A DNA stretch of 64,000 nucleotides, taken from Nymphaea colorata. Taxonomy: Eukaryota > Streptophyta > Magnoliopsida > Nymphaeales > Nymphaeaceae. Under the pieces are notes generated by a model. That model saw only the letters and a program-made list of their open reading frames with translations, made no database searches and had not been told where the DNA came from. The position numbers and the translations under genes were made by a program. The stretch is from assembly GCF_008831285.2 (NCBI RefSeq), contig NC_045144.1:18739716-18803715 (forward strand), in the 5' to 3' direction. This document shows positions 55,162 through 60,564 of this stretch, in pieces; the first letter of the stretch is position 1; each line of letters begins with the position of its first letter.

Positions 55162-58100
55162 TTACTGTACCAAGTTGGGAATCAATTTCAGTAAGAACGA
55201 TAAGGCCCCCTGAGAAAACTTGGGGTGACTCGCCACCTTCCCCTGCGACTGCGCCATCCCCTCTTCCTCTCCGGCGACGGCGCCCTGTGATTCCTCTCCG
55301 GCAGGCTTCACGAACTGTGAAACAGATTCTGCAATCTCCCCAACGAAATCCACAATCACGCCATCCACGTCCATCAAGTGCTGCATGTAGACGGCTTCCG
55401 ACACGTTGCTGCATTGCAGAATCCCATAGAAAGATTATCACCAAAAAACTGTGACATCCTCACCAGCTTCGTTGATCGACGAAGGACGCAACAAAGCTAT
55501 GACGTAGCGAGAGGATGAGAAAAGAAAAACAGAAAATTGTTGTCTGCGAGCGGGTTTGTGGCATGACAAGATTTGTTTGGAAACTTTTTGAATTGCTGCA
55601 TTGGAAACTTTTTGAACGGTTTCCAGTGACACAGAAGTCTAAAAGTTGAAATTGAAACTCCTAAAAATCTCTAAGGATGTAAAATTATTGTCTAAAAGAT
55701 TAAGGAAATGAAGAGTGTAACCATTTATGAAGTTTGTTCACTCTAAAATAAGTCAGTAATTTGATAAATAAGAAGTGAGCAAAATAGTTGGAAAAAAAAA
55801 AGAGTCGTGGTACCAGAACTTATATGGAATGATTTGAGTTAAGTCGTCCAATTCAAGAGGATCAGATTGAATTTTAAAAACAATATAAACAGACATCAAT
55901 TGGGTAGTCAAATTTTCAAGTGGAGGAACAACTCTCTGTGTTACAATGCAAACTACATAAAAATGGAATGGCTCTGATGGAGCTGCAGAAAGGAAAGATT
56001 GCTTACTTCAATTGGCCGTAGGTTAAAATTCCAAGATTGGCTTCTTTTATCTTGGGAATAGCAGCAGGATTCCGGAAGATGGCTTTAACTTCGGACACAA
56101 TCCCCTGCAGTCCTCCAGCAACGCATAGTTTAATGGCTTCCTCAAGAGAGTTTCTTCGGACGTCGTTATATATGTCAGACCCTCCATTTGTAAGGAAGAA
56201 GACCTGACCAAACGCGAGCAGAGTTTAGAACGCTTGACGAGCTAATTAGGCTAGCAATCTAGTGAAAAGAAGCATCCCAGGTATGGAATGGACTCTTCAT
56301 TGGTGTCCACGAGCTAATTAAATTAAGCCAATAGCCAAAATAACTTATCTAAAATGTAGCAAAAAATGATGAGAGAAACACTTACAGGGTAAGAGTTCTG
56401 TAATTTCCTGACTAACAGGGCTGCATCTGGTTGGAAACTTGAGAAGATTATCGATCTACCTTGTGAGTATTCAAACACAACCTGCAACAATTGACAAGGA
56501 AAGGTTTCTGATCAGGACACCCACGCATCCTAAACTACGCTGTATCAAGATAAGAATAGAAGAGGTTTCCAACAAAAGATGAGTTATTATTGACGTGCCT
56601 TCAGAATATTCTGTAGAGTCTTCAATAGCTCTTCTTCTGAATACGTCAAGCCATCGTCGAACTTGAGTTCGATGTTGAACCCCAAAGAGGATTCAACCTT
56701 CTGAAACGCTTCCTGAAGCGTGCAGAGAGCGTCGTCGTTTTCCACCTTCCAACTGAGGACCCTTCCGTCCGTTGATTTTCTTAACAGCGATTTTCCGACC
56801 TAATTTTCCATACCCATCAAAATTAGACCAAGTCCAAACACGCCAAAAGAGCAAGAGAAAGAAAAGATTCAGGGTTTACAATTGTGGGTTCTCTTTGGGG
56901 GCCGTAGCAGAGGAACTCCGCAAGCGTCAGTTCTGTGGTTCGCTTCTCCGATATGATTCCCTGCAGTTCACAGGAGTAAGACCAAGAGTTTGCAAGAGAG
57001 AGACTAGAGGGGAGGCGGAGGGGTGGGGAGGGAGAGAAACAGGGAAGCTTACCTCTTCTTCTGTGAGGATTAAGTTGTCGTGGAAAATTATGGGGCAGCC
57101 GTCTCTAGTTACCTGTACAATGAGAATCAGTTTTCCATCACCATTAATCCCAAAACAGAGGAATACAAAGGAACAAAAAAGAACATATAAACCAGAATCG
57201 ATCACTGTGATATCAACTTTGGAAGCACACAAGACAAACCCAGAAATGGTCTTTGTTAGAGGAACGAAGAAAATTCGAGCACAGAAGCCGCAGCCTCGAA
57301 GATCAAAGATGATACCGGAAAAGAATTAACAGAGTATTTTTAAGAGATGAAGAGACTACCAACAGGTCTGCTCCGACCAAGAACGAAACTCGATTCAACG
57401 TGAAAAGACAAGATTAATCATTTCGTATAAATCCAAAAATAGAATATGCCCAGGAACAGATATTCTCCGTTTTTCCAGCAAAACTTGTGAGAAGGCTCAA
57501 GAACTCCATAATTCTTTTTCTCCAACTTTGTTTACGGTTTTCTGAAATTCCTTTGATTGCAAGGAGCAAAAAAAAATGACAAGAAAATTTGTACTCTTTG
57601 TGTGAGAAAAACTTGAAACCATTCTTTTAACTTGCAGACTGCCAACAATATGACGATATTTGGGTACTTGCTTCTGGATTCGCCGCCCTTCCCTCCAGAG
57701 CCCAAAGGATACCAAATGTCATTTGTAATTACTCCGAGGGCAACTCGATAAATATGAGAGGAATCCTACTGAGAATATGATTGTTTCTCTTTAGGGCATT
57801 TGAGTCATTTTAGGAGCCCACAGTACGCGGAAAACCATGGGCGAAGAAAAGAATCGGCACGAATCGCCGAGTAATTCGGCACTAAGCAGCGCGGCCGAGA
57901 CCTCAGACACTGGCGCGAAGAGGCATAGAGAACGGACGCGGCGACCAGAAAGCGCCACCTGATCGGGGAAATTTTTTTGATTGGAAGGTGGTGAGAGAAC
58001 TCCGGCAAGCTACCTGAACGTCGAATTCCACGAACTCGACGCCGAGTTTTGCGGCGGTGTTGAAGGAGAGGAGCGAGTTCTCCTTGATCGCCTTCATCCT

Positions 58101-58950
58101 CCCGTCCGGCGAGGAGAGGGCGTTCATGCCGCTCCCCCGGTGGCCGATCACCATGAACTTCGGCGGCTTGAACGCGGTTCTCTGCTCCTCGGGTCCTGCT
58201 CATAGCCGGAAAGTCAGTTCTCAGATGCTTGTGTCAGAAAGCAATAAACAAGAAACAAAAACGAGAAACAGAATTGCAAGAAAACGATGCGAGGGAAGCA
58301 TAACTTCCGCGAAGTTAACGCGCCGGAAAAGACGATTCTCCCGGCAGCGAATCCGACAATGCCAGAGAAAAATAAGAGACATCATCCGGTCAATGAGTTA
58401 CTCGGCTTTCATCGAGAGGAAGTACGATACTAACAGACGAAGAACGTACATGACCGAAGAGACGTCGGTTCTTCATCCTTTAACTTTCAGAACCACGCCG
58501 GATAATCAATTTTTCGGCGACAGAACCAATCGACCATCTCCTCAGCAAGAGGAATGCACTAAAAACGAGAAAATAACCAGAAGAACCGATTCCTTTACCA
58601 ACGGCATTCTCCTCTACAGGAAGAAACCGTAGAAACAAAAATAGAACGTGACGCAGTTCACAAGACAACACCGTCCGGAATCTGACTTTTCCGGCAACGG
58701 AACAAAAAAAGAAGACACATAAAACCAGGACAGTTTCCTGCCACGTCCCGACAGAACTTCATCGTTCCAGCGGAGGGAAGCCGGATGCAAAGGCACACCC
58801 CGAAAAGACAAAAAGGAAGAGAAGCGGAGAGGGCCGCCGGGCGGGGAGCTCACCTTTGAGAAGTCGGCTGGAGGAGATAGCAAGCGCGGCGCTCTCCTGC
58901 ACCTGGTCGAGATTCGGGACGTCGGAGACGTGAACCGCCTTGAGCGCCAT
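55162..58950 (-). CDS. GDPD1: Glycerophosphodiester phosphodiesterase, plastid GDPD1 type
   Basis: Role (family): hydrolyses glycerophosphodiesters to glycerol-3-phosphate and an alcohol, recycling phospholipid phosphate; Arabidopsis GDPD1 is plastid-located and induced by phosphate starvation. Seen: eight exons, 58854-58950, 58014-58198, 57053-57112, 56880-56960, 56599-56799, 56386-56481, 56007-56203 and 55162-55408, joining in frame to 387 aa (Arabidopsis 392). The start MALKAVHVSDVPNLDQVQES is typical of the subfamily. The catalytic HRG is at 52-54 (VIGHRGSGMN), the E-x-D pair at 90-92 (EFDVQ), the second His at 105 (FHDN), and NIELK with E185 near mid-protein. The last blocks are GGLQGIVSEVKAIFRNP and VYMQHLMDVDGVIVDFVGEI, then a Gln/Glu-rich tail. 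Odd: the intron after exon 5 must use a GC donor (AAG-GCACGT) to keep ILK-VVFEYS in frame. The upstream DNA carries four P1BS motifs. Confidence 0.97.
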
Positions 58951-59431
58951 GACAGGTGCGAGGTGTCGGTGAAAAAGGCGGGACCGAGTCGATCCGGCAC
59001 AAAACCGAGTCGGCGGCCGAGAAGCTTGCGATCGGATGGCCGCTCCACCTGCTCGACGAGGAGAAGATTTATGGATGGTCGCAGACTCGCAGGGGGAGGA
59101 GTACTCAGAGAGAGACGGGAGAGGAAGGTGGAAGATGACGGACGGGAATATTCCGTCTGGCGCCGTTACTCTGGAAGATCCGTTCCGTCCTTGGCATATT
59201 CCCCGTACAACGACCACGCCCTCCGCCCATCCTTCTGGAAGGGGGAACCGCCGGAATGTTCCCTATGGATTCCTAACGGGAGCCGACGGAATGGAACGCC
59301 GTTAACCGCTCTCCTTCCGTGACCTCCCTATTTCTGATTCCCTCCCCTTAAATATCAATATTTCCAAACATTTTAGACAGGGAGAGGGAGCGGAATATCC
59401 AGAAATGATTCCGAAGACGCGCGGAATATCC
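58951..59431 (-). promoter_or_regulatory. GDPD1 promoter with four P1BS (PHR1) sites
   Basis: GNATATNC motifs lie at 59146-59153 (GAATATTC), 59194-59201 (GCATATTC), 59393-59400 and 59424-59431 (both GAATATCC). The last two sit in identical CGGAATATCC words 31 bp apart. A TATA-like CCATAAATC lies on the minus strand at 59066-59074, giving a leader of about 100 nt. P1BS is the binding site of PHR1-type MYB factors that activate phosphate-starvation genes, so it fits this enzyme's known regulation. Confidence 0.75.
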
Positions 59432-60501
59432 GGATAAAACTGCGGGCTGTCCCCACCCGTTGTTCTCGATTCCTTTTTTTTGTCCGCTACCTGTTGTTGA
59501 CGCCAAATCCAGAAAATTCTCGCTCTCGGTTCCGCATCCTTTGGTTTAACCGTTTCGAGATCCAAATTTGTTTCAAATCCAAATCGCATTGCTATCAGAT
59601 CCGACATCCAACTCTATATTTTTGGCAATGAGAACCCCATCCAATTTCTGCGCCTTTTTTTTTTAAAAAGGAAAATGTCAAGAAGGGAAAAAGGCGCTGG
59701 TCGATTTTGACGTCGCCCGATCCAAATCGCCTCGTCAGATCCAAGAAGGCAATGAGTGGGAATGCGGTGGCAAAGAAGGGCGGGGATCAGACGTGTATCC
59801 TCGTCACCTTCTTGGCTTCGCTTGGCTTGCTTTGGTTTGGATTTCATAAAGCCGTCGGCCCTTTGCATGTGCGCTTTTAAAACATCGGGAAATCAAAAGT
59901 TTTTATATTCGTATATTATTTTTTTTCTTCATATTAAGTATTCAAGATATTTAAACAAAAATTTTATTTTTACTTTTTTTCATTTATCTGTTTGCAGATT
60001 GCCAAATTTATAATTGATCCAGTTGAATCAATTTGAATGCACTCTTTATTATATCCACCTTATTGGGGTTCACATGTTTAGATATGAAAAAAATCTATCT
60101 GCATTGTATTACCGAATACTAGACTCGACTCCCAAAATAGATGAATATTAGACAGGAGTCCTTAAAAAAACTTTGAACCAAAGGCAACTTTTGGAGATTC
60201 TTCAAATATACAAACTGTTCTTAATTTCTTAAGCATGCATATCAGACTCTTCTCAATTTCACATAGTTGTTGGGATTTGCCTTTGAAACATCTTAGTTGG
60301 GAGTCTTCATCAAACGACGTGCCATTTGACGCGGCAATGCATGCAAGGGCAAGAGAACTGTTCTTGACGGAATAAATTGTAAAGGAAAATGGAACTCATG
60401 ATCTTTGACTTTGAACTTTTTTTTCTTGTAAAATTCTTAATTTATTTTAAAAATTGTATTTCTTGAAAAAGTGATTATCCTCTCCCTCTCTCTCTTCCTT
60501 C

Positions 60502-60564
<63 letters not shown>

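What the first reader, a model, noticed from the sequence alone, without database searches (positions are those of the whole stretch)
59146..59431. Four P1BS (PHR1-binding) motifs packed upstream of the GDPD1-like gene
Four exact GNATATNC sites occur in 286 bp, where about 0.07 is expected for a six-fixed-base motif in random DNA. Two are in identical CGGAATATCC words 31 bp apart. Arabidopsis GDPD1 is a phosphate-starvation gene, so motif and enzyme agree. It suggests strong, possibly cooperative PHR control conserved in this lineage.
Basis: partly seen in the sequence, partly recalled or inferred. Interest (0 to 1): 0.7.

Follow-up and report, generated by a model that had tools for sequence, protein, structure and literature searches.

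The report
Phosphate-starvation switch upstream of lipid-recycling gene
Four copies of the DNA word that plants' low-phosphate master regulator binds sit just upstream of a gene for an enzyme that salvages phosphate from membrane lipids, an expected arrangement that fits a known control circuit but has not been tested in this species.

Summary
[quoted passage not shown] In the same genome the motif occurs once per 4149 bp, 0.069 per 286 bp. Local composition does not explain the cluster (0 of 20,000 shuffles reach 4). By Poisson arithmetic, 0.25 of 31,580 promoters of 500 bp would hold four. It is not unique: about 5 such clusters are expected by chance in 408 Mb, more because of repeats. In 56 other loci (293 kb) no 286-bp stretch held more than two. 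A control supports the PHR reading: 3 of 12 SPX-domain loci carry two sites within 500 bp of the ATG; three SPX4-like genes carry none there. MYB-CC (PHR-type) genes are present. PHR control of GDPD genes is known from Arabidopsis and proposed in rice, so this is a new member of a known kind. Cooperativity and conservation in the lineage were not tested. One site is also an exact NIGT1 site, so repressor competition is possible.

The parts
59146..59153 (.). P1BS site 1, GAATATTC (palindrome; also an exact NIGT1 site), -196 to -203 from ATG
   Evidence: NIGT1 overlap from PMC7660924 and PMC5893545 (passages)
59194..59201 (.). P1BS site 2, GCATATTC, -244 to -251 from ATG
59393..59400 (.). P1BS site 3, GAATATCC inside CGGAATATCC (59391-59400), -443 to -450 from ATG
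59424..59431 (.). P1BS site 4, GAATATCC inside CGGAATATCC (59422-59431), -474 to -481 from ATG
59254..59261. one-mismatch P1BS-like site GAATGTTC; may be chance (one search lists two more such words in the region, at 59174 and 59512)
55162..58950 (-). GDPD gene, 8 coding exons: 58854-58950, 58014-58195, 57053-57112, 56880-56960, 56599-56799, 56386-56481, 56007-56203, 55162-55408; 386 aa, open throughout
   Evidence: model built by hand, no transcript; the exon 5 donor has to be GC-AG, AAG|GCACGT; PF03009 E=1.6e-42 over residues 51-328
58951..59450 (-). upstream region taken as proximal promoter; no TSS evidence; no TATAAA, TATATA or TTTATA word in 58951-59700

Best explanation
The four sites are the phosphate-starvation control region of the GDPD1-type gene. 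When phosphate is low, SPX proteins release a PHR (MYB-CC) dimer, which binds the palindromic GNATATNC sites 200-480 bp upstream of the ATG and raises transcription. The enzyme then hydrolyses glycerophosphodiesters from deacylated membrane phospholipids to glycerol-3-phosphate, from which phosphate is salvaged. Shown here: sites, gene, genome density, and paired sites at some SPX genes of the same genome. Inferred from other species: PHR binding, induction, enzyme activity and location.
For: The four sites exceed local-composition and genome expectation. Of 56 other loci held (293 kb, some overlapping), none has more than two sites in 286 bp. The downstream gene is an intact GDPD. Control: of 12 SPX N-terminal loci, 3 have two sites within 500 bp of the ATG: C6 -185/-162, C14 -164/-142, C2 -250/-183. 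Three SPX4-like loci and one other single-SPX locus have none within 500 bp, and the five loci without a found MKFG start have 0-1 sites in the whole stretch. Binomial probability of 3 of 12 at genome density is 6e-5, which treats the loci as independent although the C6 and C14 genes look like duplicates. The MYB-CC domain is present: 39 matched stretches, 38 over the cut-off. Literature, passages only: PHR1 target GDPD1/SRG3 (PMC13139890); barley GDPD1 log2fc 5.78 in Pi starvation (PMC7941915); OsGDPD2 suggested downstream of OsPHR2 (PMC9460063); four P1BS on a minimal promoter respond to Pi starvation in 9 of 10 Arabidopsis lines (PMC2936532).
Against: No expression or binding data for this species. 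About 5 clusters of this density are expected in the genome by chance, and repeats make more. P1BS pairs are not more clustered genome-wide than the reversed control motif. Nine of 12 SPX loci lack two sites within 500 bp, one non-SPX4-like single-SPX gene among them. The 8 PHT1 promoters could not be fetched. No orthologous or paralogous GDPD1 promoter could be compared. Site number does not strictly predict inducibility (PMC4378627). The TSS is unknown.
Confidence: 0.85

Rival explanations
1. Combined control: PHR activates through all four sites, and NIGT1/HHO repressors, which bind GAATATTC, compete at site 1, so nitrate status tunes the phosphate response.
For: Site 1 is an exact GAATATTC. 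NIGT1 dimers bind GAATATTC, which overlaps P1BS (PMC7660924, passages). PHR1 and NIGT1 compete at NIGT1-clade promoters (PMC5893545, passages). GATTC words occur at 59268, 59336, 59407 and 59468.
Against: No GATTC-N30-46-GAATC pair and no GAATC word in 58951-59700. Single GATTC words are common by chance. NIGT1 genes were not sought here. Not exclusive of the best explanation.
Confidence: 0.3
2. The cluster is chance, or came from local duplication of a short word, and has no regulatory role.
For: About 4.7 clusters are expected genome-wide by Poisson. Pairs are in excess over Poisson, and the reversed control even more so. Sites 3 and 4 share a 14-bp near-repeat.
Against: 0 of 20,000 composition-matched shuffles. 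Sites 1 and 2 are different words and lie about 190-280 bp from sites 3 and 4. The similarity of sites 3 and 4 ends at 14 bp. The position upstream of a phosphate-salvage gene did not enter the count.
Confidence: 0.1
3. The sites serve another GARP or MYB-type factor (for example KANADI- or LUX-type), or the GAANNTTC words are heat-shock half-sites, rather than PHR.
For: GARP motifs overlap (PMC7660924, passages). GAANNTTC occurs at 59146, 59254 and 59512. A soybean GDPD2 gene is placed under a different MYB, Myb73 (PMC11132883: title, start of abstract and passages; no PHR or P1BS in its text). The KANADI/LUX resemblance is recalled, not tested.
Against: No three-unit heat-shock element and no AAATATCT evening element in 58951-59700. 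All four sites meet the full P1BS consensus, and gene function fits phosphate.
Confidence: 0.08

Closest known systems
Arabidopsis GDPD1/SRG3 (AT3G02040), PHR1 target (PMC13139890, summary and passages)
   Same: Same enzyme family; phosphate-starvation and PHR1 control reported there
   Different: Number and spacing of P1BS at AtGDPD1 were not seen in any passage read here; no sequence comparison by a call
Arabidopsis PLDZ2, lipid-remodelling gene with four P1BS (PMC4378627, passages)
   Same: Phospholipid-breakdown gene with four P1BS in its promoter
   Different: Different enzyme; sites there counted over 1 kb upstream of the 5'UTR, here within 286 bp
Synthetic 4xP1BS minimal promoter (PMC2936532, passages)
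   Same: Four copies of the element
   Different: Artificial tandem array shown to respond to Pi starvation; here natural, unevenly spaced and untested
SPX gene promoters of the same genome (L052 on C6, L055 on C14, L054 on C2)
   Same: Two P1BS within 500 bp of the ATG, 22-67 bp apart
   Different: Two rather than four sites within 500 bp, all within 250 bp of the ATG

Membership tests
PHR/P1BS-controlled phosphate-starvation genes | P1BS (GNATATNC) in the proximal promoter | tested here: met
   four exact sites at -196 to -481 from ATG
PHR/P1BS-controlled phosphate-starvation genes | Site density above chance | tested here: met
   but about 5 such clusters expected genome-wide by chance
PHR/P1BS-controlled phosphate-starvation genes | PHR-type MYB-CC regulators in the genome | tested here: met
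   PF14379, 39 stretches, 38 over cut-off; which of them is a PHR1 orthologue was not resolved
PHR/P1BS-controlled phosphate-starvation genes | Induction by low phosphate, lost in phr mutants or on site mutation | not testable with these tools
   no expression data
PHR/P1BS-controlled phosphate-starvation genes | PHR binding at the sites | not testable with these tools
   no DAP-seq, ChIP or EMSA
Plant GDPD1-type glycerophosphodiester phosphodiesterase | Complete GDPD domain in an open coding sequence | tested here: met
   386 aa; PF03009 profile positions 1-243 of 244, E=1.6e-42
Plant GDPD1-type glycerophosphodiester phosphodiesterase | Closest to AtGDPD1-3 rather than GDPD4-6 or GDPDL | tested here: inconclusive
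None of the other 16 PF03009 loci matches it by tblastn at E<=1e-3 (loci reach only 1.5 kb either side)
NIGT1-repressed genes | GAATATTC or GATTC-N38-GAATC | tested here: met
   one GAATATTC at 59146; no GATTC-N30-46-GAATC. A motif match only; binding untested

The most novel reading that the evidence does not exclude
If the genome is the water lily Nymphaea colorata, PHR control of GDPD1 through a dense P1BS cluster was already in place in a lineage that split off near the base of the flowering plants. The cluster (two close pairs, one of whose sites is shared with NIGT1 repressors) would then be an old, high-gain phosphate switch with nitrate input.
Probability: 0.3. Interest if true: 0.4.

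Novelty: new member of a known kind. Interest (0 to 1): 0.27.

Why it matters
It gives a concrete, easily tested candidate PHR target for membrane-lipid phosphate salvage in what looks like an early-diverging flowering plant. With the SPX promoters of the same genome it would help date the PHR-P1BS wiring of lipid recycling. It does not change the picture of the pathway.

Tried and rejected
Chance from composition was rejected. Genome-wide motif clustering as the cause was only partly rejected: close pairs exceed Poisson 1.65 times (1214 of 734 expected), and the reversed control motif about 2.9 times (1638 against 558, my arithmetic from the count). Repeats make pairs, but the two close pairs here are unlike each other. 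Among the first 100 places listed, read by eye, two start a group of three in 286 bp and none a group of four.

A heat-shock or evening-element reading was dropped for lack of full motifs. The PHO element ATGCCAT is absent from 58951-59700. A preference for flanking G/C was looked at and dropped: all 4 sites here have a G before or a C after, but so do 19 of 42 random sites, and only 3 of the 7 sites in the three SPX loci. Rfam finds nothing in the window at gathering thresholds. Helical phasing of the spacings (31 and 48 bp here; 22, 23 and 67 bp at SPX) is too mixed to claim.

Full report
WHAT IS THERE. The window lies in a 407.77-Mb plant genome of 783 contigs (C7:18739716-18803715). Its size, and chromosome-sized contigs among C1-C14 (12.6-44.0 Mb for the 12 whose lengths were shown), fit Nymphaea colorata (409 Mb, 14 pseudo-chromosomes, 31,580 genes: PMC7015852, passages). 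This name is an inference; no call names the genome. Four exact GNATATNC sites stand at 59146 GAATATTC, 59194 GCATATTC, 59393 GAATATCC and 59424 GAATATCC. The last two are inside identical CGGAATATCC words 31 bp apart. That word occurs 170 times in the genome, fewer than its reversed control (254). Of the 57 loci held, only L018, which is this place itself, has two copies with a gap of 12-42 bp. The 8 other CGGAATATCC loci examined (L001-L008, all on C1, of 170) carry at most one further site in 3 kb.

THE GENE. On the minus strand the sites lie -196 to -481 from an ATG at 58950. Reading the strand and joining eight exons gives an uninterrupted 386-aa protein. The first attempt broke frame after exon 5, because a GT donor four bases downstream was used; a GC-AG intron (AAG|GCACGT) keeps the frame. 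That step is a model without transcript support. Pfam assigns GDPD over residues 51-328, E=1.6e-42. Eight distinct solved-structure sequences match, best E=1.6e-9, all named as GDPD or phosphodiesterase. The GDPD1 label within the plant family is recalled, not tested. The other 16 PF03009 loci of the genome show no tblastn match to it at E<=1e-3 and carry 0-2 sites each in about 3.2 kb, never two within 286 bp.

IS IT MORE THAN CHANCE. Genome density is 98,277 places, one per 4149 bp; the reversed control motif has 85,670. Expected in 286 bp: 0.069. The window total is ordinary, 15 against 14.35. Local dinucleotide shuffles: 0 of 20,000 reach four in each of three overlapping stretches tested. 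Poisson: 4.7 such clusters in the genome (7e-4 in a 64-kb window by proportion), 0.25 in 31,580 promoters of 500 bp. Repeats make real pairs commoner than Poisson: 1214 against 734, and the reversed control shows 1638. The cluster is therefore not unique in the genome. What makes it telling is its place at a phosphate-salvage gene. In 20 stretches of 10 kb taken at regular steps on C1, C3 and C7 (200 kb; 42 sites) no 286-bp stretch holds three. In all 56 loci held other than the gene's own (292,857 bases, overlaps counted twice) the maximum is two, in 7 loci, three of which are SPX promoters.

POSITIVE CONTROL. The PF03105 search gave 27 stretches, 12 of them starting at profile position 1. 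About 1.2 kb upstream of all 12 was fetched. Seven have a recognisable MKFG start. Of these, three carry two P1BS within 500 bp (C6 -185/-162 plus one at -769; C2 -250/-183; C14 -164/-142); C6 and C14 look like duplicates of each other and may not be independent. Three start MKFGKEF, which I recall as SPX4-like, and have none within 500 bp; one of them has a site at -929. One further gene (L057) has none. Five others, probably PHO1-type (recalled), had no MKFG start found and carry 0 or 1 site in the whole stretch. P1BS pairs near the ATG are thus a feature of some presumed phosphate-responsive genes of this very genome, not of all SPX genes. MYB-CC domain stretches number 39, and full-length PHT1 matches over the cut-off 8; PHT1 promoters could not be fetched.

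MECHANISM. Two PHR MYB domains sit on one imperfect palindrome (PMC8948245, passages). SPX with inositol phosphate holds PHR off DNA when phosphate is ample (same paper; PMC7660924, passages); a 2026 paper reports that SPX1 itself binds P1BS DNA (PMC13044247, title, start of abstract and passages). Four P1BS on a minimal promoter give a Pi-starvation response in Arabidopsis, and P1BS number in the proximal promoter correlates with inducibility, though not strictly (PMC2936532, passages; PMC4378627, passages). GDPD enzymes turn glycerophosphodiesters into glycerol-3-phosphate, and all six Arabidopsis GDPDs except GDPD4 are induced by Pi starvation (PMC9460063, passages). GDPD1/SRG3 is described among the high-light-induced PHR1 targets (PMC13139890, summary and passages), and barley GDPD1 rises by log2fc 5.78 (PMC7941915, passages). 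P1BS is also enriched at differentially expressed genes, up and down, of starved Marchantia (PMC7672586, passages; no GDPD named there), so the motif's use is old in land plants. The same chain is the best explanation here; binding and induction are inferred. Cooperativity is open: no passage read here shows it for P1BS pairs, and the spacings give no clear phase.

RIVALS. Site 1 is an exact NIGT1 motif, and PHR1 and NIGT1 compete at such sites in Arabidopsis (PMC5893545, passages), so nitrate input is possible. A soybean GDPD2 gene is placed under Myb73 (PMC11132883, title, start of abstract and passages), so a non-PHR MYB cannot be excluded. Chance stays at about 0.1.

LITERATURE STATUS. A search for GDPD + P1BS + Nymphaea found 0 papers. 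Searches on GDPD/P1BS/PHR, Nymphaea/phosphate starvation/P1BS and GDPD2/PHR2 showed no report of this promoter among the rows listed, judged by title and start of abstract. Only open-licence PMC papers are held.

VERDICT. Real, above chance and sensible, but of an ordinary kind: most likely a new member of the PHR/P1BS regulon in a plant where, as far as these searches show, this gene had not been looked at.

Noticed in passing
56593-56601 (exon 5 end, minus strand): The GDPD reading frame stays open only if intron 5 uses a GC-AG donor (AAG|GCACGT) rather than the nearby GT.
   Followed up: partly
56604-56611 and 57442-57449: Two further P1BS words lie inside the GDPD gene, one in coding exon 5 and one in intron 2; at genome density about one is expected in 3.8 kb.
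   Followed up: no
59150-59168 / 59274-59292: A 19-nt imperfect inverted repeat (79%) in the upstream region; its first arm overlaps the end of P1BS site 1.
   Followed up: no
about 60508-60561: Long (TA)n microsatellite between GA- and CT-rich stretches, upstream of the GDPD region.
   Followed up: no
G000:C5:4703149-5301485: Twelve of the 100 listed CGGAATATCC places (of 170 in all) fall within 0.6 Mb on C5, all on the + strand, which suggests a repeat family carrying the word.
   Followed up: no
G000:C12:10901210-11227458: Six of the eight full-length PHT1-type phosphate transporter matches lie within 0.33 Mb on C12, which suggests local expansion; a partial match at 11116653 holds stops.
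   Followed up: no
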